A stretch of DNA of 64,000 nt, from the NCBI RefSeq assembly GCF_035934735.1, contig NZ_CP142396.1, positions 558,001-622,000 of the forward strand, written 5' to 3'. This DNA is from Sedimentibacter sp. MB31-C6 (GTDB lineage: Bacteria > Bacillota > Clostridia > Tissierellales > Sedimentibacteraceae). The notes beneath the pieces are model-generated. The model did no database searches, was not told where the DNA came from, and saw only the letters and a list, made by a program, of their open reading frames with translations. The position numbers and the translations under genes were made by a program. Below, in pieces: positions 12,995 to 63,354 of this stretch. Every line of letters starts with the position of its first letter. Position 1 is the stretch's first letter.

Positions 12995-13196
12995 AAAGAC
13001 CTCCAATAATTATTGTCAATTTTTATGTATTTTTTCCCATAATATTTTAATTATTCCACCAACTGCAAACACCCTAAATTTATATTGTATTTTTTACAAA
13101 AGTTGTTTACAATTAATATATTATTATGGTATATTAATACTGAATGTAAAAAATATAATAAAAATAATTACGATATGAAGATAAAGGATGTATATT

Positions 13197-13631
13197 ATGG
13201 ATTCAATAGATATTAAAATTATTTACAATATAGAAAGAGAAGGTAGAATTTCTCATGAAGAATTATCCAAAAGATTAAATTTGTCTAGACCCGCTATACA
13301 TAATAGAGTTAACAAGTTAGAAGAACAAGGAATAATATCTGGTTATAGAGCAAATATTAATTGGGTAAAACTCGGTTATACAACAAACGCATTGATATCA
13401 CTTAGAGTCAGAACTACGAATTATGATAAATTATTAAAGGAATTAAAAAATCTTATAATTCCAAATTTAGTAATAGAAGAGTGCCACATCGTAACTGGAA
13501 CATGGTGTATAATGATGAAAGTCCGATGTACTAGTCCTCTTGAATTAAAAGCACTCCAAGACGAATTATATAAAATAGATTGTATAAAGGAATCTTCAAC
13601 TTCGTTAATTTTATCTTCAATTTATGAGTAA
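13197..13631 (+). CDS. Lrp/AsnC-family transcriptional regulator
   Basis: 144 residues from the ATG at 13197; an ATG nine bases earlier overlaps the AAAGGA ribosome-binding site and is less likely. Residues 1-55 form the winged helix-turn-helix (LDIKI-like start, ISHEELSKRLNLSRPAIHNRV). The remainder is the ligand-binding RAM/AsnC domain with the turn CHIVTGTWCIMMKV. Such regulators respond to amino acids. Its divergent position next to the lipoprotein and near hutH makes an amino-acid-related target plausible but unproven. Confidence 0.9.
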   Translation: MDSIDIKIIYNIEREGRISHEELSKRLNLSRPAIHNRVNKLEEQGIISGYRANINWVKLGYTTNALISLRVRTTNYDKLLKELKNLIIPNLVIEECHIVTGTWCIMMKVRCTSPLELKALQDELYKIDCIKESSTSLILSSIYE

Positions 13632-13637
13632 AATATG

Positions 13638-13668
13638 AAAACCAACAATTCTGCAATTGTTGGTTTTT
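13638..13668. terminator. bidirectional terminator between convergent genes
   Basis: AAAACCAACAATT pairs with AATTGTTGGTTTT around a short loop. An A-run and a T-run on the two sides suit both the Lrp-like gene (+) and the FMN-binding lipoprotein (-). Confidence 0.85.
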
Positions 13669-13679
13669 AATTTTTTACT

Positions 13680-14144
13680 TTATCTTTGATCTAATGCTTT
13701 ATTTACAGCTTCTTTTATAGCATTACTTGTCATAGTTGCACCAGAAACGCTATCTACATCAGTAGAATCTGCTTCAACAATTTTATCGGGTAATTCTTCT
13801 AATGCTAATGTACCAACACCTTCAGTTTCATCTTCACCAACTGCATCCACTGAAACTATGTCTTCTCCATTTACTACTACTGTAACAGTCACTTCACCGC
13901 CATAACCTTGTGCAGAGCCAGTCAATGTTTCAGAGTCTTCATTGTCAGTACCATCATCTATGATGTCATCATCCAAATTTTCTTCTATATCATCACCTAC
14001 ATCTTCAATATCGTCACCTGCTTCGTCAACAATATCACCACCATTATCTCCAACATCACCAACATCACCAGCATTATCATCCTCGGCACATGCAACCATA
14101 CTAATGCACAATAATATGCATAATAATAATGATAATTTTTTCAT
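13680..14144 (-). CDS. FMN-binding-domain lipoprotein with acidic linker
   Basis: 154 residues. The signal peptide ends in the lipobox SMVAC (Cys19). Residues 25-75 are an extreme Asp/Glu/Gly/Val-rich linker with no basic residues. The C-terminal domain (about 80-152) is a short FMN-binding domain, with DVDSVSGATMTSNAI containing the SGAT-type sequence to which ApbE attaches FMN covalently in RnfG/NqrC-like proteins. It would be an extracytoplasmic, membrane-anchored flavoprotein carrying electrons. No apbE and no other electron-transport genes are nearby. The GGAGG site before the ATG is clear. Confidence 0.85.
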   Translation of the reverse strand: MKKLSLLLCILLCISMVACAEDDNAGDVGDVGDNGGDIVDEAGDDIEDVGDDIEENLDDDIIDDGTDNEDSETLTGSAQGYGGEVTVTVVVNGEDIVSVDAVGEDETEGVGTLALEELPDKIVEADSTDVDSVSGATMTSNAIKEAVNKALDQR

Positions 14145-14222
14145 TTTTTACCTCCAATCATTTTTGAATGTTAAAACTCGTTATTTATTATAACCAATTT
14201 AAAATTTATAATTAATTAAAGC

Positions 14223-14254
14223 AAAAAAAACTGTAGGAAGTTATCCCACAGTTC
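14223..14254 (-). terminator. terminator of the AOR-MoaD operon
   Basis: On the minus strand AACTGTGGGA pairs with TCCTACAGTT, followed by TTTTTT. It lies just downstream of the MoaD-like gene. Confidence 0.82.
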
Positions 14255-14262
14255 CAATAATA

Positions 14263-14475
14263 TCACCCTCCACCAAGTATTGGCAAAATGTAAATTAGAG
14301 AATTATCTTTATTCTTTTCAGAGAGTTTTTTTGGTACACCATCTACTAACACAGCACCAACCTGACTTTTATCTATATTTAATTCAGAAATAATTTCCCC
14401 CAATGTAACATCCCTAAAGTCCATATCATACGTTTTAACTTCATTATCGTCAACAGCTATCTTTATTGTCACCAT
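14263..14475 (-). CDS. MoaD/ThiS-like sulfur-carrier protein
   Basis: 70 residues, a beta-grasp (ubiquitin-like) protein ending in Gly-Gly-Gly, which fits the MoaD/ThiS C-terminal Gly-Gly that is activated as a thiocarboxylate. AVLVDGVPKKLSEK corresponds to the usual central strand-turn. It starts 7 bp inside the 3' end of the aldehyde oxidoreductase gene, so it is translationally coupled to it. This suggests a dedicated carrier for that enzyme's tungsto/molybdopterin cofactor; that role is inferred from position. Confidence 0.85.
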   Translation of the reverse strand: MVTIKIAVDDNEVKTYDMDFRDVTLGEIISELNIDKSQVGAVLVDGVPKKLSEKNKDNSLIYILPILGGG

Positions 14476-16154
14476 GATTTCATCATCTCCATTGAATCTA
14501 AACTTTCCTTTTCAATATCGAATACAGCATTTAACTTAGGTACAGTTCTTTCTGTAAAGGATTCTGGCAATCTATAATTTTCCTTGGAAAACCCAGCTAA
14601 TTTATTAAAAGTATATTCATCTTTTATAGTATCCTTAGACATTTTCTTCAACCATTCCATATTTAGGTTCCATCCAAATCTGGCATTTACAAGATCTACT
14701 AAGATTTGTTGATTTGAAGCAATGGCATTTCTTGTAAACATACATAAACCTAAACTGTCAAGAGTAGCCATAAGTATCTGCGCTTCATTAGAAGCTTCTG
14801 TCCAATCTTTATCTGATTTAATTAGAGGTCCATAAGTATGATCAGACCCCATTGGAGATGTAGCATAAGTTACTCCCATTCCTTTTATTGTCCTAGGATC
14901 ATAAGCTGGCATTGACTGACCATTGACAGCAGGTATATTAGTAATTCCAAGAACTTTACCTGTTATCGTTGTACCGTTTCCAAGAACCTTCCCTAAGACA
15001 GTTCCTTCTTTAACTTCTCTCAATAATTCAAAGGCAGAATCAGTATCTCCAAATTTAGCTAATCCTGATTCCATTGCTACACCGATGGCACCACCTATTT
15101 CTATTGTATCAATTCCTATATCATTACAAATAGCATTCATTCTCGCAATAACATCTAAGTCGCTAATACCTAAATTCGAGCCTAACAATCCTATCGTTTC
15201 ATATTCTAAAGGAGATACTATAGTATTTCCTTCTTCATTTGGTACAACGTTAGAACATTGAATAATACATCCAGGCATACAGGCGTGAGCTGTCTTCCCT
15301 TCTCCACCTCTTAGTTTTATAAGTTCATACAGTGTTTCACCATAAATATTATCAACATTTTCTAATTGCTCTCCACTAAAATTTCTCACTGGCAATCCTG
15401 TTAATTCATGGGTTACCCTTACCGTAGAAGCTGTACCAAGGGTTTTATAATTTTGCGTACTAGGTGCCTCAGATAAAATTTTAGTATATTCCTTTAATGA
15501 CTTTGTAAAATCACCTTTATTTTCAATATGTAAAGATTCTTTATCAGTCACGACAATACCTTTAATCTTTTTAGATCCCATTACTGCCCCTAAGCCACCT
15601 CTACCACTATATCTATTTGGTTTTTTTTCTTTATCCATTGTCGCAATACCAGCAGCATTATACAATCTTTCGCCAGCAGGTCCAATACAACTAACACCAC
15701 AGTTCGGATATTTTTCAAGCATTTTTTCACAAAATTCAAATGTGCCCATACCAATATATTCATTTGCTGACTCTAAACTGCCTCCACTTTTATCTATCCT
15801 TAAATAATACCAATTATTATCATTTGGTATATCTTCAATAATAACTGCTTTTAACCCTAACCTAGCAAGCCACATAGCAATTATGCCGCCACCATTGCTT
15901 TCCTTAATACCACCTGTTAATGGACTTTTAGCTCCAATACTAATTCTACTTGCACTCGAAACATTAGTACCTGCTAAAAATCCATTTGCAAAAATCAATT
16001 TATTATTTCTTCCTAATGGTTCACATGTAGGTTTAACTTCCTGTAACATAATTTTTGCTATTAGACCTCTTCCACCAGTTTTCAAATAATTTTCTGGAAT
16101 ATCATCAAATACAACATCTTTTGTTCTCATATTCACTCTAAGAATTTTTTTCAA
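14469..16154 (-). CDS. aldehyde:ferredoxin oxidoreductase family (tungsten-pterin) enzyme
   Basis: 561 residues, slightly shorter than classical AOR (about 600). The start is TTG at 16154, with AGGTGAT upstream; no ATG fits better. N-terminal signatures are TGGRGLIAK and the pterin-binding stretch SRISIGAKSPLTGGIKESNGGG. The 4Fe-4S ligands are Cys292, Cys296 and Cys300 (CMPGCIIQC), with a fourth Cys in DSLGLCMF. The family oxidises aldehydes to acids, or the reverse, with ferredoxin in anaerobes. The substrate cannot be told from the sequence. It is followed by a coupled MoaD-like gene. Confidence 0.92.
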   Translation of the reverse strand: MKKILRVNMRTKDVVFDDIPENYLKTGGRGLIAKIMLQEVKPTCEPLGRNNKLIFANGFLAGTNVSSASRISIGAKSPLTGGIKESNGGGIIAMWLARLGLKAVIIEDIPNDNNWYYLRIDKSGGSLESANEYIGMGTFEFCEKMLEKYPNCGVSCIGPAGERLYNAAGIATMDKEKKPNRYSGRGGLGAVMGSKKIKGIVVTDKESLHIENKGDFTKSLKEYTKILSEAPSTQNYKTLGTASTVRVTHELTGLPVRNFSGEQLENVDNIYGETLYELIKLRGGEGKTAHACMPGCIIQCSNVVPNEEGNTIVSPLEYETIGLLGSNLGISDLDVIARMNAICNDIGIDTIEIGGAIGVAMESGLAKFGDTDSAFELLREVKEGTVLGKVLGNGTTITGKVLGITNIPAVNGQSMPAYDPRTIKGMGVTYATSPMGSDHTYGPLIKSDKDWTEASNEAQILMATLDSLGLCMFTRNAIASNQQILVDLVNARFGWNLNMEWLKKMSKDTIKDEYTFNKLAGFSKENYRLPESFTERTVPKLNAVFDIEKESLDSMEMMKSW

Positions 16155-52031: not shown

Positions 52032-53273
52032 ATGATAGATAAAACGTTATGTGAATTATTCGCAGGTGTAGGTGGTTTTCGATTAGGACTAGAAAAGGCA
52101 TCTAAAGACTGGAAAACAGTTTGGGCAAATCAATGGGAGCCTAAAAAAAAGCAACAACATGCTTTTGATTGCTATTGTGAGCATTTTGGTAAGAAAGAAA
52201 TATATATAAATGAGGATATTGCCTCAATTGACAAATCTAAAATTCCTGATCATAATTTGCTTGTCGGTGGTTTCCCTTGTCAAGATTATTCTGTTGCAAG
52301 AACAGGTGCAAAAGGAATTAACGGAGTAAAGGGAGTACTTTGGTGGGAAATACGAAATATTCTAGAAATTAAAAAGCCTAAATTCGTTTTATTAGAAAAT
52401 GTCGATAGATTACTAAAATCTCCAGCTAAACAACGTGGGCGTGATTTCGGTGTGATGCTAGCCTGTTTTAATGAATTAGGATATAATGTCGAATGGCGTG
52501 TTATTAATGCTGCAGAATATGGTTTTGCGCAAAGAAGACGTCGAATATTTATTTTTGCTTACACTAGAGAAACAAAATTTGCTTCAATGCAAAGTTCAGC
52601 AAACGCTCAATGTATAATAAATACAGCAGGGTTTTTTGCAAGAACTTTTAAAATAAATCCTATAAATAATATCCAAAATACAAATCTGATTTATAAGGAC
52701 TTAGCAGATGTTTCTGAAAATTTTAAGTATGAGTTTGGTAATTCTGGCTATATGAATAATGGGCAAATTTATACTAGTAATGTAACACCTGTATCTATAA
52801 AGCCTATACCTCTGAGTCAAATTCTAGAAAAAAATGCAGATAATAAGTATAATATAAACGAAAGTAATTTGGAAAAGTGGAATTATTTAAAAGGTAGCAA
52901 AAAAATCGAAAGAACTAGTAAAGCCGGACATAAATATATATTTTCAGAAGGTCCTATAGCTTTTCCAGACCCAATAGATAAGCCTGCTCGTACAATGTTA
53001 ACTAGTGAATCCAGCTTAAATAGAAGCACTCATGTAATTAAAGATCCTACAACCAGCAAATTAAGACTTTTAACACCTGTTGAAGCTGAACGACTTCAAG
53101 GATTTGATGAAAATTGGACAAATACTGGAATGCCAGAAAAATTCCGTTATTTCTGTATGGGAAATGCTTTAGTGGTAGGTGTAGTTGAGAAAATGGGCCA
53201 AACACTTAATAAAATATTCTCAATCGAAGAATCAGACTATGTAATTGAAAATGAGGAAAGGAAAGCTATTTAG
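52032..53273 (+). CDS. DNA (cytosine-5-) methyltransferase
   Basis: 413 residues. Motif I is LFAGVGGFRLGL (9-20), motif IV is GGFPCQDYS with catalytic Cys83, motif VI is LENVDRLL (Glu122), motif VIII is AQRRRRIFIF. Motifs IX/X (PVEAERLQGF and GNALVVGVVEKMG) close the C-terminus. It methylates cytosine at C5 in its recognition site. The convergent Sau3AI-type endonuclease suggests GATC as target. The start ATG at 52032 has only a weak GGAAAG/AGGAA upstream. Confidence 0.94.
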   Translation: MIDKTLCELFAGVGGFRLGLEKASKDWKTVWANQWEPKKKQQHAFDCYCEHFGKKEIYINEDIASIDKSKIPDHNLLVGGFPCQDYSVARTGAKGINGVKGVLWWEIRNILEIKKPKFVLLENVDRLLKSPAKQRGRDFGVMLACFNELGYNVEWRVINAAEYGFAQRRRRIFIFAYTRETKFASMQSSANAQCIINTAGFFARTFKINPINNIQNTNLIYKDLADVSENFKYEFGNSGYMNNGQIYTSNVTPVSIKPIPLSQILEKNADNKYNINESNLEKWNYLKGSKKIERTSKAGHKYIFSEGPIAFPDPIDKPARTMLTSESSLNRSTHVIKDPTTSKLRLLTPVEAERLQGFDENWTNTGMPEKFRYFCMGNALVVGVVEKMGQTLNKIFSIEESDYVIENEERKAI

Positions 53274-53520: not shown

Positions 53521-54945
53521 TTATAAAAACTTTTTATTTAATTGACTAAGTATATAATTACTATTTAACCAGAAACATTGTTTAGGATATTGTCTACCGT
53601 CGGGTAACTCATATGTATCGTTAGCATTTTGTGCGTGTGGTCTTACGTGACATACGGGATTTTCAGATGCCTTTGGAAAATTATTATAATTCCTACCATT
53701 TCTATTTATAATTTGCAATCCGTCTACTATCACTTGTTTAGTTTTTTTCCATACAGAATATACTTCTTCATTTAAATCTCTATATGGAACATTCCAAAAC
53801 TGACATCCTCTTAATCTAAGCACTTGATTTTCATCAAACTTATATACTACAAATAAAAATCTTGTTTCACGCAAATAATTACCAAAACTAGAATCCTCCC
53901 AATCCTCTTTTACCAGTTCTTTAAATTTAAACGTTGGAAATGACATACTTTCTTTAATTTTATTATTAGAATTCAATCTTATAGTTTTTATAACAATATT
54001 TGCCTTTACAAATTCTTCTGCTTGATTTCCCTTAATTCCTAAAATTCTATATATTAACATAGCTTCTAAGTTTTTCGGTTTTCTTTTGTATTTAACCTCA
54101 AATACCTTACATAATTCATCCACACTAAAATTACTAAAACTCTCAATTTTATTAACTACATAGTCTTCAAAATTAACATCCACAACATCTTTCATTATTG
54201 TTTCATATGTTGTTACATTTGGAACTATATAGTTATTTAAAACGTATGTCATGTATGAATTCTTATATGCAAAAGCTCTAGGTTTTGCTAATTCATCACT
54301 AAATGGTTGTCGTCTTCTATCTTTAGATGTTGCAGCCTTAGGAGCTGCACCTAAATAAAGCGTATCACTCTCAGATAATTCATGAGCTTTTCCAGCTTTT
54401 ATTTTATTAATAATTTTTTCATAGTCTTGCTTAATAATCCTAATGTCTTTATTAGGTGGAGAAAATAATTTTACATAATTGATTCTATAATTTAATCGAT
54501 TACTTATTTCCTTCTCATACAAGTAGTATACAAGTAAAATCAAATTACCCTTAGACCATAAATGACTTTCTTCAAATTTTTCATTTATAACAGAAAAATA
54601 ATCAATCATTGTAATTATTAGTCGTTCTTTAGCAGACAAACTTTTGTTTTTATTTATTTTATAAGGTGTAACTTTTAATTCTACTCCAGCTTTATCAAAA
54701 TCAGGCTTAGAATCATTATTACACGCATAGTGGAAGTGACACTCTTCTATGAGTTGACCTAATCCACCCTTACGCTTTTTGTTTTCATAATTATATGCAA
54801 GTTCAGTTTCCTTAAAAATTTGTGTATCTACTTCAACATAATCTTTTACAACGTCATAAAACGTTTTTCCTATTAATTTTTTAGCATGATTTTCTATACT
54901 TATAGGATTCGATTCATCATAATCATTATCATGTTTATATACCAA
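53521..54945 (-). CDS. Sau3AI/MutH-family type II restriction endonuclease
   Basis: 474 residues, close to Sau3AI (489). The MutH-like catalytic centre is at the N-terminus: GLGQLIE (Glu67), PDF (Asp82) and GVELKVTP (Glu89, Lys91), the E...D...ExK set. The C-terminal half would be the second, non-catalytic MutH-like domain of Sau3AI. It should cut GATC unless the methyltransferase has modified the cytosine. The start is a TTG at 54945 with GGAGG eight bases upstream, a weak start that would limit expression. The genes are convergent. Confidence 0.9.
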   Translation of the reverse strand: MVYKHDNDYDESNPISIENHAKKLIGKTFYDVVKDYVEVDTQIFKETELAYNYENKKRKGGLGQLIEECHFHYACNNDSKPDFDKAGVELKVTPYKINKNKSLSAKERLIITMIDYFSVINEKFEESHLWSKGNLILLVYYLYEKEISNRLNYRINYVKLFSPPNKDIRIIKQDYEKIINKIKAGKAHELSESDTLYLGAAPKAATSKDRRRQPFSDELAKPRAFAYKNSYMTYVLNNYIVPNVTTYETIMKDVVDVNFEDYVVNKIESFSNFSVDELCKVFEVKYKRKPKNLEAMLIYRILGIKGNQAEEFVKANIVIKTIRLNSNNKIKESMSFPTFKFKELVKEDWEDSSFGNYLRETRFLFVVYKFDENQVLRLRGCQFWNVPYRDLNEEVYSVWKKTKQVIVDGLQIINRNGRNYNNFPKASENPVCHVRPHAQNANDTYELPDGRQYPKQCFWLNSNYILSQLNKKFL

Positions 54946-54979: not shown

Positions 54980-55192
54980 TTAAATAGTCTCACTCAAACT
55001 TACTACACTATATTCGTCTTCAAAATACTTATCTATTAGACATTTCACTTCTTCTTTTGCTAAACAATCCAATATTGTAACTGCACCCGTACTATCAGGA
55101 AAATCTTCGTTTTCCAATATAAACTGACAAAATTTCATTATTACTGGTATTCTGCCTAATGCGTTTTTTGCTTCCACAACCATAAATATCAT
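54980..55192 (-). CDS. short ORF of unknown function upstream of the endonuclease
   Basis: 70 codons (VVEAKNALGRIPVIMKFCQF, then an acidic C-terminal half). There is no good ribosome-binding site and no recognised motif. It may be a leader gene co-transcribed with the endonuclease or the tail of a lost gene. The spacer 55193-55402 after the ATPase gene shows nothing else. Confidence 0.35.
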   Translation of the reverse strand: MIFMVVEAKNALGRIPVIMKFCQFILENEDFPDSTGAVTILDCLAKEEVKCLIDKYFEDEYSVVSLSETI

Positions 55193-55402: not shown

Positions 55403-57562
55403 TCATTTCATCATTTTTTTATAATGCTCTTCATATCCACATTCTACAAACATCAAGCGAAAGGCCTCTTTAAAATTATTATAATCGAACTCTTTTATAT
55501 CAAAAATATTCTGGCCTAGTGAATGAGATTCTCGGTTAATATATCTACGAAAAGCTTGGTATTTTGCAGCTTTAAGTTCAGGTTTTTGGAATACATTATT
55601 CAAATCTCTTTTTTCTATAAAATTAAAAAAATACTCGATAATATTTCGCATACAATTTGCAATCAATGCTGGAGGCTGCTTATCGTCTTTAATTATGAAC
55701 CAATATGAGTGATAGTCATTTTGAATTTCCTCGTATTTCATTTCATAGAATTGACTGCCTTTACAGTTTTTGGTTAAACGAATTAGTTTTTGAACCTCTT
55801 CTCTTTTGTTGTGATTCGTTAAAGTCATTTCATAAAAGAAATATAGGCTATGTGTTAATAGAAATACCTGTTCATAGCTTGGAGATTTAAAATAATCATT
55901 TTTAATCATTTGTCCAATGTTAAAAATGTAAATATGTGATAGACTTGATATAGGATCATCAATCACGACTATCTTTTTGCCGGAATGGCCAGTGACCGTC
56001 TTTTTTCCTTTACACAATTCCCTAAAGTAAAGAAAACTAATAATCATTTTTTCACCTTCACTTAAGGATTCAAATGTGTTTTCACATTTCTCGCTTCTTA
56101 CAATCTTATATAGAGTATCTGTATATTTTTCTATATGAAAGCCATCTATTCCGAGTTCAAGGAGGCCGCTATTAATGTTTGCAATTGCTTCTTCAATATT
56201 TACTGTTTTCTTCTGCTGATCAACAATTATTTGTTTTTGCATTGATATTTGATTATCAACTTTTTTAATTTCTTCACGTAGTTGTTTCAATTTTTTTTCG
56301 CTTACGGCTCTGTCAGTATGGTAAGCTGATATCGTCTGGTCGAATTCCCAACGCATATTAGCCCAAAACTGCTCTTTAATTGTATTAAGTGAGGCATCTT
56401 TATTTTGCATTTTTTCATTATGTTCATTTATGAGATTATTAATATCCTCTACAAAGTTATTGAATTCTGCAATTACCTGAGTAGAATCCTCGAGTACGAC
56501 AATTTGACTAGGTGTTTTTATTTTTTCAGAAATTTTCTCTTTGTTTCCACTCAAAAGATAAATCAAAGCATTATATAGACTATCAAAACTCGATTTTTTG
56601 TCTTTAATAAATGGATTAGCATTGTAGGTTTCTTTATTAGGTAGTGTATCGATAAATAATCCATAATCCGATAAAAGTTTTTTTATTTCGTCAAGATCAT
56701 TCTCATAAGTTTTATCGAAGTAATTTTCTATGCTTTCAACTAAAGCAACAGTAATTGTCCTTTCTTGGCAAAATGGGCATGGTTCAACTTTATTTTCTGA
56801 ATTTAACAAGATATATTTTAGGCCTTCTTTTACCCAATCGGAATTATCTAGTTTTTTAATTAATGTTGCAACAGTGCTATTTTCATTACCCACGATGGGT
56901 TTGTTGAAAATCTGGTTTTTCTCAATATCTGAAAAAACTGATTTAATAGTTGGAAGTAGCTCGTATTTTTGCGCAGTACTCCCTTTAATTGCGTCAACTT
57001 CTTTTTTTAGTTGATCAATTGTCTTTTGCGGCTGAAGTGCAGGCTTTGCAATATTATCTAAATATGTAAATAAAGTTCCTCTACTGCCTTTAAGTCTATC
57101 AAGGCAGTATTCTAAGACCCCGCCAGCAAATTTAGTTTTAATTTCCCATGTCTTGTTTTCGGCATTCTGCTTATTAGTATCAAAATCATTTATTTTATTA
57201 GTTATTTCAATATTTTTTGTTGCCTTATCTTTACCCAGTTTATCTATTTCTTTCTCAGCATTTCTAATTTTTTCCTCAGATTCTTTATTTTCCTTTGAAA
57301 GTGTAAATATGCATTTGAGATTTTCAGGCTGATAAAAGTAATCCTTTATGAAACGCTGATTATAGACAAGAATTTCGTTGTCTGATAAACCATCAATAGA
57401 ACAATTGGCAAAATTAGCACATGTCGGATTATATAAGAAATCTGATATGGTACTTTTGCCAGTTCCATTTAAACCATAAATTAAGTTGATTTTTTTATCT
57501 GTCGTAAGAGAAGCTGGGCTTTTAAAGCTATTTACACTATTCATATTGATTTTTACAATCAT
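55403..57562 (-). CDS. PrrC/RloC-like ABC ATPase (AAA_13), candidate anticodon nuclease
   Basis: 719 residues. Walker A GLNGTGKST (30-38), signature SLSEGEK (499-505), Walker B KIVVIDDPISS (530-540) and the switch His in LLTHS (571) form an ABC-type head. Between them lie coiled-coil segments (about 95-145, 180-215, 370-460) and a zinc-hook-like CPFC (Cys262, Cys265), as in RloC. The last 120 residues contain R639-x3-E643 and His680, comparable to the R-x3-E...H triad of PrrC/RloC tRNA nucleases; the spacing to His is 37 instead of 32. Other AAA_13 defence ATPases share parts of this tail, so nuclease activity is unproven. AAGG precedes the ATG. Confidence 0.8.
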   Translation of the reverse strand: MIVKINMNSVNSFKSPASLTTDKKINLIYGLNGTGKSTISDFLYNPTCANFANCSIDGLSDNEILVYNQRFIKDYFYQPENLKCIFTLSKENKESEEKIRNAEKEIDKLGKDKATKNIEITNKINDFDTNKQNAENKTWEIKTKFAGGVLEYCLDRLKGSRGTLFTYLDNIAKPALQPQKTIDQLKKEVDAIKGSTAQKYELLPTIKSVFSDIEKNQIFNKPIVGNENSTVATLIKKLDNSDWVKEGLKYILLNSENKVEPCPFCQERTITVALVESIENYFDKTYENDLDEIKKLLSDYGLFIDTLPNKETYNANPFIKDKKSSFDSLYNALIYLLSGNKEKISEKIKTPSQIVVLEDSTQVIAEFNNFVEDINNLINEHNEKMQNKDASLNTIKEQFWANMRWEFDQTISAYHTDRAVSEKKLKQLREEIKKVDNQISMQKQIIVDQQKKTVNIEEAIANINSGLLELGIDGFHIEKYTDTLYKIVRSEKCENTFESLSEGEKMIISFLYFRELCKGKKTVTGHSGKKIVVIDDPISSLSHIYIFNIGQMIKNDYFKSPSYEQVFLLTHSLYFFYEMTLTNHNKREEVQKLIRLTKNCKGSQFYEMKYEEIQNDYHSYWFIIKDDKQPPALIANCMRNIIEYFFNFIEKRDLNNVFQKPELKAAKYQAFRRYINRESHSLGQNIFDIKEFDYNNFKEAFRLMFVECGYEEHYKKMMK

Positions 57563-57572
57563 TACATTACCT

Positions 57573-57604
57573 TGTATAATGAATATATAGGAAAATTCAT
57601 TATA
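57573..57604. promoter_or_regulatory. perfect inverted repeat at the ATPase promoter
   Basis: GTATAATGAAT (57573-57583) and ATTCATTATAC (57594-57604), 11-bp perfect arms with a 10-nt centre, directly before the ribosome-binding site. The minus strand of the outer arm contains TATAAT, a possible -10 element, so the repeat may be an operator. Confidence 0.6.
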
Positions 57605-57666
57605 CTTTCCTTTCTAGATTATTTTCTATTAAAATCTTTAATTGGATTGTTTCAAATCTTTTATAA

Positions 57667-58169
57667 TCAAGGACTGAAACAACAGTTTTTTCTGTTCCTG
57701 TTACTGCCATATTTATTTTGTTTTAATATTGTAATTAAATTTTGACAATCATTTGTATCGTCTTTATTGAACAGATAAAACTCTGAGTCATGCCAATAAG
57801 ACTCAAGAGTAGCATTGAATTTACGAATCATATCTTTTGAAGTGTATTCTGAAATGATAGTATCATTTATTAAATGGAGTGGGTTAGTTCAATTATAAAC
57901 TCACCAAAATCTTCTAATTGCTGTTCGTCAATTAGAAATTCTATTATCTTGTTACATATTTCAATTTGTTTGTTTAATTTGTCTTTACCGGAAATTCTAT
58001 TTAAAGATTTGTTAATGACTGTAGACATGTATTTAGAAAGAATTGAGCTTCCTTCTTCTTTGTCTATATCTCTTTTATCTATGTAAGTATTTTTAGACTG
58101 TAGCTTTTGAATTTCATCATCTATAAGTTTGTTAATTACTGACTCGTAGAAACCATTATTAAGTGACAT
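57667..58169 (-). pseudogene. debris of a DUF3427/PLD-type superfamily II helicase
   Basis: From the ATG at 58169 (AGAGGTG upstream) about 100 codons read SLNNGFYESVINKLIDDEIQ, DKRDIDKEEGSSILSKYM and IEICNKIIEFLIDEQ, the start of DUF3427-type DEAD/PLD helicases that are normally about 900-1000 residues. The frame stops at 57870. A neighbouring frame continues from about 57884 (DTIISEYTSKDMIRKFNATL, ESYWHDSEFYLFNKDD) to 57667, probably an internal piece joined by a large deletion. The helicase core is gone. This accounts for most of the spacer 57563-58169. Confidence 0.65.
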
Positions 58170-58397
58170 TCCCCACACCTCTGTCTTTAATTATGTCTCT
58201 CTAGTTATATGTAAATCTTTCTTTTTATGAATTGAAATATAAAATTATGACTTTGTTTATACATTAACACTAATTATAACATAATATTACAAAATATACC
58301 ATATAAATGTTTTGTTTTTAATAATTTTTAATAATTTGCCAATCAAAAGCAAATGAAGTATGAATTTTTCAAGTTTTCGATATAATAAAAATAACTA

Positions 58398-62716: not shown

Positions 62717-63091
62717 TTAAGAATTTAATAATTTTTCATAAATAGCATTAAAAATTATATTACACCTGTTTAAAGCCTCTTCTGGTGCTTTTTCTATAAA
62801 TTCATACTGTCTATCACTCAAATTCAAAACTTTAACTTGATCCATTAGTATGTCACCTTTAGTTTGGATATTGTATTTATCTAAATTTACCCTTGTGAAA
62901 AACGTACTAATTGAATTTGTTATTGGTACTACTGTTACTATACCATTCAATTCTTTTTGAGTAATTGGATCTGATATTACAACTCCAGGTCTATAGCCTT
63001 TCTGTTCGTGTCCTTTAGATGAGGAAAAATTAATTTTTATTATGTCGCCAAATCTCAAATTATTATAATTGTTCTTATCTAATTTAGTCAT
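62717..63091 (-). CDS. mazF: MazF/PemK-type endoribonuclease toxin
   Basis: 124 residues from the ATG at 63091; a GTG at 63103 overlapping the antitoxin stop is an alternative. Signatures: RFGDIIKINFSSSKGHEQKGYRPGVV in part (GHEQKGYRP) and VTVVPITNS. It would cut mRNA when not bound by MazE. It follows the antitoxin gene directly, the usual order. Confidence 0.9.
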   Translation of the reverse strand: MTKLDKNNYNNLRFGDIIKINFSSSKGHEQKGYRPGVVISDPITQKELNGIVTVVPITNSISTFFTRVNLDKYNIQTKGDILMDQVKVLNLSDRQYEFIEKAPEEALNRCNIIFNAIYEKLLNS

Positions 63092-63096
63092 AATTA

Positions 63097-63354
63097 TTAC
63101 CACTCTTCTTTTCCAGTGGGATTACCCCAGTCTATATCTACTTTTGGATTTAATTTTTCTCCATTAGACTGTTCTGCTAAAAGTTCGAATTTAGTTTTTT
63201 CTTGTTTCTTTTTTAATATCAACTTATCACCTTCTATATCCATACTAAAACTTATCTTTTCAAAATTATTACTATCTATATTTAATTCTTCTAATATGGT
63301 CTTTGGTATACGAATAGCCGCACTATTTCCCCACTTAGATAAATTAGTTTTCAT
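63097..63354 (-). CDS. mazE: MazE-type (AbrB-fold) antitoxin
   Basis: 85 residues. The N-terminal swapped-hairpin DNA-binding domain has the typical LSKWGNSAAIRIPKTILEEL. The C-terminal tail is acidic and Trp-rich (DIDWGNPTGKEEW), suited to block the MazF active site. It should repress its own promoter together with MazF. AAAGAGG precedes the ATG. Confidence 0.9.
   Translation of the reverse strand: MKTNLSKWGNSAAIRIPKTILEELNIDSNNFEKISFSMDIEGDKLILKKKQEKTKFELLAEQSNGEKLNPKVDIDWGNPTGKEEW

What the first reader, a model, noticed from the sequence alone, without database searches (positions are those of the whole stretch)
55403..57604. PrrC/RloC-like ATPase with candidate anticodon-nuclease triad beside a GATC restriction system
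The protein has the ABC head, coiled coils, the zinc-hook-like CPFC, and in its last 120 residues R639-x3-E643 and His680, the residue types of the PrrC/RloC tRNA nucleases. PrrC guards a type I system; here no hsd genes exist and the neighbour is a type II Sau3AI-like pair. A guard of a type II system, or a free-standing RloC-type sensor of DNA damage, would be new. A perfect 11-bp inverted repeat over its likely promoter (57573-57604) suggests tight control.
Basis: partly seen in the sequence, partly recalled or inferred. Interest (0 to 1): 0.66.

Follow-up and report, generated by a model that had tools for sequence, protein, structure and literature searches.

The report
RloC-type tRNA-cutting toxin gene
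This gene encodes a member of RloC, a known family of bacterial proteins thought to stop protein synthesis by cutting tRNA after DNA damage or phage attack; it is intact and may well be active, but it is not a new kind of system, and its restriction-enzyme neighbour looks like loose company rather than a partner.

Summary
The 719-aa ORF at 55403-57562 (-) has an ABC/Rad50-like head, coiled coils with a CPFC hook, and R639-x3-E643-x36-H680 with Ser before His. In a 44-row alignment the triad columns are among the five best-conserved C-terminal positions and coincide with the triad of two hsd-flanked PrrC proteins; profile comparison with PrrC gives 91%, E 1e-6. Relatives 40% identical in Campylobacter and Helicobacter lie between hsdS and hsdR, the setting in which rloC was named. 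Every sequence feature of RloC that I could test is met, so it is an RloC; PADLOC lists the family as candidate 'PDC-S06'. It is not PrrC: wrong size, hook present, no HsdR in the genome. Two novelty claims fail. Free-standing RloC is the published norm. The Sau3AI neighbour is not a conserved partner: absent from five relatives' genomes, and four Sau3AI plasmid loci lack rloC. Type II systems do recur beside RloC-like genes (4 of 26 other loci). But a Lactococcus plasmid has lost its type II block, leaving the last 26 endonuclease codons, while rloC stays intact, which argues against obligate guarding. Verdict: new member of a known kind.

The parts
55403..57562 (-). rloC, 719 aa: ABC ATPase with zinc-hook coiled coil and C-terminal anticodon-nuclease-type domain
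   Evidence: Pfam AAA_13 9e-110; PADLOC PDC-S06 2e-255 full length; alignment with hsd-embedded rloC and PrrC
57452..57475 (-). Walker A, aa 30-37 GLNGTGKS
   Evidence: sequence; conserved
56768..56779 (-). zinc-hook motif CPFC, aa 262-265, in a loop between predicted helices 243-252 and 272-281
   Evidence: both Cys in 42 of 42 non-PrrC rows, absent from both PrrC; model
56051..56065 (-). ABC signature LSEGE, aa 500-504
55952..55963 (-). Walker B IDDP, aa 534-537
55406..55735 (-). C-terminal helical domain (about aa 610-719) predicted to be the anticodon nuclease
   Evidence: hhalign with PrrC 91.2%, E 1e-6; domain model pLDDT 76.6, pTM 0.69
55646..55648 (-). R639 of the triad
   Evidence: 43 of 44 rows
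55634..55636 (-). E643 of the triad
   Evidence: 42 of 44 rows
55523..55525 (-). H680 of the triad, preceded by S679
   Evidence: 39 of 44 rows
57574..57605 (.). perfect 11-bp inverted repeat, 10-nt loop, upstream of the rloC start
   Evidence: role unknown
53521..54945 (-). Sau3AI-family (GATC) type II endonuclease, same strand, 457 bp beyond the rloC stop
   Evidence: NCBIfam NF040973 1.8e-165
52032..53273 (+). C5-cytosine methylase, tail to tail with the endonuclease
   Evidence: Pfam 4.5e-67; PADLOC MTase_II 5e-173
54980..55192 (-). 70-aa ORF between rloC and the endonuclease, function unknown
   Evidence: weak PADLOC PDC-M33C match 2.6e-4
57654..58178 (-). decayed relic of a PLD-nuclease/DEAD-helicase/DUF3427 protein upstream of rloC
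   Evidence: matches in pieces to a 1066-aa relative

Best explanation
An RloC-family anticodon nuclease. Shown here: the domain layout, the conserved ATPase and hook motifs, and a triad homologous to that of PrrC. Inferred from published RloC work: the Rad50-like ATPase head with its zinc-hook coiled coil holds the C-terminal nuclease silent, senses DNA ends (linear or broken DNA, as during phage degradation of the host chromosome or genotoxic stress), hydrolyses nucleotide, and lets the C-terminal domains cut a tRNA anticodon loop, probably removing the wobble nucleotide, so that translation stops and a phage cannot complete its cycle. It carries its own switch and needs no restriction partner. 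The Sau3AI pair is most likely a separate defence module that settled in the same variable region.
For: RloC definition met: 719 aa (range 658-897), R-x3-E-x36-H with Ser before His, CXXC in a coiled-coil insert. Triad columns are among the five best-kept C-terminal positions, in register with two PrrC proteins flanked by hsd genes. PrrC profile match 91.2%, E 1e-6. Campylobacter and Helicobacter relatives (40% identity) sit between hsdS-like and hsdR genes and fall with the window protein in a 12-row group of support 98/96. The window protein and the Campylobacter one match the same PADLOC model at 2e-255 and 2e-244. The head models as Rad50/SMC (Foldseek E 3.5e-8 to Rad50; VIA Z about 15). 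No HsdR match in the genome. The 14-15 kb around psuK in three same-genus genomes keep psuK-psuG but lack the R-M and rloC genes.
Against: No sequence of a biochemically tested RloC (G. kaustophilus, A. baylyi) could be fetched for direct comparison. Some RloC-like relatives have lost the His (L018-L020, L054), so the family label does not guarantee nuclease activity. The C-terminal domain gave no significant PDB match (best VIA Z 4.5). One recent paper calls RloC's function unknown and finds it correlated with phage susceptibility in Pseudomonas, which its authors read as possible lack of protection (passages).
Confidence: 0.85

Rival explanations
1. A guard of the type II system: the Sau3AI proteins silence the RloC nuclease, and phage inactivation of the R-M system releases it, as with PrrC and EcoprrI.
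For: The genes lie on one strand 457 bp apart. Type II systems are close to RloC-like genes in 4 of 26 other loci. In two lactobacillus plasmids the order MTase-REase-rloC with a 14-bp gap lies in a 98% identical 5.3-kb block.
Against: The genomes of the five relatives from genome contigs have no Sau3AI relative (0 of 5). Four Sau3AI plasmid loci looked at (of 22 records) hold no RloC relative within 6 kb by tblastn. Two Lactococcus plasmids are 99.1% identical over 3,964 bp around rloC, but one lacks the type II block and keeps only the last 26 endonuclease codons, so the block was lost beside an intact rloC. In Helicobacter L003 the hsdR next to an intact rloC is split into two ORFs. The nearest sequence relative (L001) showed no R-M gene among the 7 of 11 neighbouring ORFs scanned.
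Confidence: 0.07
2. Functional relay through DNA: GATC cleavage of phage DNA by Sau3AI makes the linear ends that switch RloC on, so R-M and RloC act in series without protein contact.
For: Published GkaRloC activity needs linear DNA (passage); 10 of 26 other RloC-like loci lie near type I, type ISP or type II systems, all of which cut DNA.
Against: No direct evidence; partners differ, and 14 of 26 loci showed no R-M system, so any coupling would be opportunistic.
Confidence: 0.12
3. An RloC-like ATPase whose C-terminal RNase acts on another RNA, or which is no longer active.
For: tRNA specificity cannot be read from sequence; His-less relatives exist.
Against: The window copy has the intact triad and no stop or frameshift.
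Confidence: 0.13
4. A DNA-repair or recombination ATPase of the SMC/Rad50 kind without nuclease function.
For: Head and hook resemble Rad50.
Against: A conserved extra C-terminal domain with a PrrC-type triad; patchy presence (5 of 398 phylum genomes at E 1e-20, own included).
Confidence: 0.04

Closest known systems
RloC anticodon nuclease (G. kaustophilus, A. baylyi; Campylobacter rloC)
   Same: Size, ABC motifs, CXXC hook in coiled coil, R-x3-E-x36-H triad with Ser before His; usually not linked to R-M; relatives inside hsd loci
   Different: Neighbour is a type II GATC system; the published table counts linkage to type I/III only
PrrC anticodon nuclease
   Same: Homologous ATPase and nuclease parts with the triad in register
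   Different: PrrC is 341-416 aa, has no hook and is linked to type I hsd genes; here 719 aa, hook present, no HsdR match in the genome
PADLOC candidate PDC-S06
   Same: Window protein matches PDLC04886 over its whole length, as does the hsd-embedded Campylobacter rloC
   Different: Only a label: the candidate family contains RloC
Lamassu LmuB / Rad50 / SMC
   Same: ABC head with coiled coil
   Different: These lack the C-terminal triad domain (for Rad50/SbcC stated in PMC2610378; for LmuB and SMC recalled)

Membership tests
RloC | R-x3-E-x36-52-H near the C terminus, Ser often before His | tested here: met
   R639-x3-E643-x36-H680, S679; definition from PMC2610378
RloC | Length 658-897 aa | tested here: met
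   719 aa
RloC | ABC ATPase motifs split by a coiled-coil insert with CXXC zinc hook | tested here: met
   Walker A aa 30-37, signature 500-504, Walker B 534-537, CPFC 262-265 within a predicted coiled-coil insert
RloC | C-terminal domain homologous to the PrrC nuclease domain | tested here: met
   hhalign 91.2%, E 1e-6, triads in register
RloC | tRNA anticodon cleavage with excision of the wobble nucleotide | not testable with these tools
   needs expression and RNA mapping
RloC | Activation by DNA ends, inhibition by zinc through the hook | not testable with these tools
   published for GkaRloC
PrrC | 341-416 aa, no zinc hook | tested here: not met
   719 aa with CPFC
PrrC | Linked to a type Ic hsd locus | tested here: not met
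   neighbours scanned are a type II pair and others; HsdR 0 matches in the genome
HEPN superfamily | Four-helix fold with R-x4-6-H | tested here: inconclusive
   Helical core modelled; R673-x6-H680 present but R673 not conserved; weak VIA rows AbiV (Z 4.5, rmsd 4.8, 103 aligned) and HepT (Z 3.6, rmsd 4.6, 90 aligned)
Type II R-M guard | Stable linkage of rloC with the same R-M system | tested here: not met

The most novel reading that the evidence does not exclude
RloC works in series with type II restriction: the DNA ends made by a neighbouring enzyme (Sau3AI here; BsuBI/PstI or PaeR7I types elsewhere) are the signal that turns the tRNA nuclease on. The pairing is then a two-step, sequence-specific abortive infection module joined through DNA rather than through protein silencing.
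Probability: 0.12. Interest if true: 0.6.

Novelty: new member of a known kind. Interest (0 to 1): 0.25.

Why it matters
It fixes the identity of the gene and of the PADLOC candidate family PDC-S06, which contains hsd-embedded rloC. In the 26 loci examined (a convenience sample, mostly plasmids) RloC-like genes lie beside type II systems as often as beside type I (4 and 4), a linkage not counted in the 2008 survey. That makes a simple question testable: do restriction-made DNA ends trigger RloC?

Tried and rejected
AbiR of Lactococcus pKR223, which I recalled as flanking a GATC R-M system: a lead only. The two Lactococcus loci read do not show a Sau3AI-type enzyme, and the paper search gave listings only.

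Inverted repeat as conserved operator: rejected. Of 11 relatives only L025 has an 11-bp arm, with another sequence and farther upstream; the others have 8 bp or less. The 101 nt around it fold better than shuffles as RNA (z -3.06, 2 of 200 shuffles as good), but the predicted fold is not the simple hairpin of the repeat; left open. A 12-codon leader ORF that overlaps the rloC start was read by eye and not tested.

Triad superposition: H680 lies in residues 679-684 with pLDDT below 50, and likewise in the domain model. Foldseek of the domain found nothing at E 0.001 or better. No PrrC or RloC chain is in the rows listed, which excludes nothing. phmmer against PDB sequences: 2 weak matches, E 0.17 and 0.88, neither a relative. 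A tblastn of the upstream 99-aa ORF against plasmids gave one weak record.

Scan of viral contigs with the window protein alone found no relative; other queries gave L028, L057 and a relic L029/L058.

Enrichment test: of the 60 listed records (of 145) with a BsuBI/PstI relative, 5 also appear in the RloC-like lists, in two near-identical groups. The query came from one of them and I saw only part of the RloC-like lists, so I do not rest on it. No control for the background frequency of type II systems around other defence genes was run.

Rows dropped: the alignment leaves out L010-L012 (AAA_13 proteins with R and E but no His at that column), short or weak matches L008, L009, L013-L016, L042, the partial L004, the split L026, and the relic L029/L058. 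With L010-L012 the His count would be 39 of 47. L027 is included though cut at its 5' end; near-copies (L021/L022, L053/L079, L047/L049, L018-L020) were not merged. The neighbourhood count of 26 leaves out the window, L004, L029/L058, L057, L079 (near copy of L053) and the genome-search loci with short flanks. It rests on PLSDB or GenBank annotation, which for PLSDB is incomplete, except L001, L002, L003, L005, L028 and L048, where I scanned ORFs (L001 7 of 11, L005 5 of 5, L028 2 of 3, L048 4 of 8). 'No R-M system' is therefore provisional.

Full report
Observation. The ORF at 55403-57562 on the minus strand encodes 719 aa and is intact. Pfam gives AAA_13 over almost its whole length (E 9.1e-110). 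PADLOC gives the candidate family PDC-S06 (PDLC04886, E 2.1e-255, residues 1-719) and, weakly, PrrC (E 7e-7). The inverted repeat is at 57574-57605, one base from the stated place.

Is the triad real? By itself the spacing motif is not remarkable: shuffles of the last 120 residues show R-x3-E-x36-52-H in 12.6% of cases, and in 0.46% with Ser before His. The alignment settles it. Across 44 rows (the window, 41 RloC-like proteins, two PrrC) R639 is kept in 43, E643 in 42, H680 and S679 in 39 each. These and N636 are the five best-kept positions after residue 580. Both hook cysteines are kept in 42 of 42 non-PrrC rows and are absent from both PrrC. The His is replaced in L018, L019, L020 and L054 and unaligned in L038. 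Three more distant AAA_13 proteins (L010-L012), dropped from this count, keep R and E but not His.

PrrC comparison. Their loci hold hsd-like genes next door (L045: methylase, specificity-like, PrrC, HsdR-like; L046: specificity-like, PrrC, HsdM-like; read by eye). Profile comparison with the window family gives 91.2% probability, E 9.9e-7, over residues 499-693, with R639/E643 and S679-H680 opposite the PrrC residues.

Which family? The 2008 RloC paper (passages seen, PMC2610378) defines RloC by R-x3-E-x36-52-H with Ser often before His, 658-897 aa, and a CXXC hook in a coiled-coil insert. It takes the name from inserts in Campylobacter jejuni type I loci and reports only 8 of 73 linked to type I or III systems. 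Every sequence criterion tested is met. Named relatives include Campylobacter sp. US33a (L002) and Helicobacter burdigaliensis (L003), 40% identical, in which the gene lies between an HsdS-like gene and hsdR (in L003 hsdR is split into two ORFs). In the tree the window protein pairs with a Kryptoniota MAG protein (56% identity, support 99/98) inside a 12-row group holding the Campylobacter and Helicobacter proteins (98/96). The Campylobacter protein and the window protein share the same PADLOC model, so the PADLOC candidate PDC-S06 includes RloC. A Bacillus cereus survey lists PDC-S06 among candidates that another tool names differently (passage, PMC11811056); which name was not in the passage.

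Structure. The full model (pLDDT 77.8, pTM 0.49, seven sequences) has a Rad50/SMC-like head (Foldseek top hit Rad50, E 3.5e-8; VIA Z about 15) and long coiled coils with the CPFC in a loop. The C-terminal domain alone (pLDDT 76.6, pTM 0.69) is mostly helical, but the loop with H680 is below 50. No significant PDB match was found. The second-look rows include AbiV (top, Z 4.5, rmsd 4.8, 103 aligned) and HepT (Z 3.6, rmsd 4.6, 90 aligned) among unrelated helical proteins. AbiV is listed among HEPN proteins in PMC11811056 (passage), and PrrC/RloC domains were assigned to HEPN in PMC3710099 (passages). These Z values are too low to count as a test.

Neighbourhood. On the same strand, a 70-aa ORF and a full-length Sau3AI-family endonuclease follow rloC; a C5 methylase faces the endonuclease. 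Upstream, 57654-58178 is a decayed relic of a PLD-nuclease/helicase/DUF3427 protein. Three same-genus genomes keep psuK and psuG but have other genes in place of the R-M and rloC block in the 14-15 kb read. Among 24 other same-genus genomes none showed an intact close relative with AAA_13: the best are pieces with stops in G019, a partial match in G017, and weak AAA_13-like ORFs in G003 and G023, whose proteins L012 and L011 lack the His. In the phylum, 5 of 398 genomes, own included, have a relative at E 1e-20 or better. The block therefore lies in a variable region. HsdR has no match in the genome, and Sau3AI occurs once.

Is type II linkage meaningful? I looked at 26 other RloC-like loci with useful flanks. 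Type II REase plus MTase: L022, L027, L050, L053 (4). Type I: L002, L003, L052, L077 (4). Type ISP: L005, L051 (2; L005 has an HsdM-like gene too). Methylases only: L054, L075 (2). No R-M system seen: L001, L021, L023-L026, L028, L047-L049, L055, L056, L076, L078 (14; L001, L028 and L048 scanned in part, the others by annotation that may be incomplete; L056 has a lone cytosine methylase about 6 kb away). L026 is split in two ORFs and L027 is cut at its 5' end. In lactobacilli an MTase-REase-rloC cassette with a 14-bp gap is carried on two plasmids, 98% identical over 5.3 kb.

Against a tight bond: the Sau3AI family is absent from the genomes of the five relatives from genome contigs (0 of 5). 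Four Sau3AI plasmid loci (of 22 records) hold no RloC relative within 6 kb; the one tblastn row was 33 residues at E 0.36. Lactococcus plasmids L021 and L022 share rloC at 99.1% over 3,964 bp. The type II block of L022 (about 13000-15568) is missing from L021, where the last 26 endonuclease codons remain at 100% identity; the block was evidently lost while rloC stayed intact. Only a stretch of the L021 plasmid was read, so an R-M system in trans is not excluded. Labels for R-M type are scattered over the tree and hardly more clustered than shuffles.

Mechanism. [quoted passage not shown] PMC2610378). I infer the same for this protein. Whether RloC protects against phage is open: a Pseudomonas survey calls its function unknown and finds correlation with susceptibility (passages, PMC12447246), and a Streptococcus thermophilus study listed but did not test it (passages, PMC12322248).

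Print check. Searches for RloC with type II, restriction and anticodon found 12 papers (listing; some read in passages); RloC with BsuBI and RloC with Sau3AI found none. The library holds open-licence PubMed Central papers only. The HEPN paper already says such genes are often found in R-M operons.

Verdict. A well-preserved RloC, new member of a known kind. The type II setting is a modest extension worth one experiment.

Noticed in passing
57654-58178 (-): Relic of a 1066-aa PLD-nuclease/DEAD-helicase/DUF3427 protein in pieces, one piece inverted (57851-57958); a second, 82% identical N-terminal copy lies at G000:C1:435600.
   Followed up: partly
L018, L019, L020, L054 (C-terminal part): A supported group of RloC-like proteins (100/100) that keep the Arg but have Val or Asp in place of the catalytic His; one is annotated as RloC ACNase in Streptococcus phage Javan105.
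   Followed up: partly
L021 and L022: Nearly identical Lactococcus plasmid stretches with rloC; one has lost the BsuBI/PstI type II block, with the last 26 endonuclease codons left behind.
   Followed up: yes
L003:10192-13130: In Helicobacter burdigaliensis the hsdR downstream of rloC is split into two ORFs while rloC is intact.
   Followed up: partly
L053 and L079: Three-gene cassette MTase-REase-RloC-like, REase to rloC gap 14 bp, 98% identical over 5.3 kb on two lactobacillus plasmids.
   Followed up: partly
L058 (UViG 2852055501): Stop-filled rloC relic in a viral contig.
   Followed up: no
57562-57600 (-): A 12-codon ORF behind a purine-rich stretch starts inside the inverted repeat, and its stop overlaps the rloC start (TAATG); possible leader or coupling, read by eye.
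   Followed up: no
54980-55192 (-): 70-aa ORF between rloC and the endonuclease, weakly like the C-terminal end of PADLOC PDC-M33C.
   Followed up: no
62717-63354 (-): A MazF/PemK-type toxin (Pfam 9.9e-17) with an AbrB/MazE-looking 85-aa ORF upstream (by eye), 5 kb from rloC.
   Followed up: no
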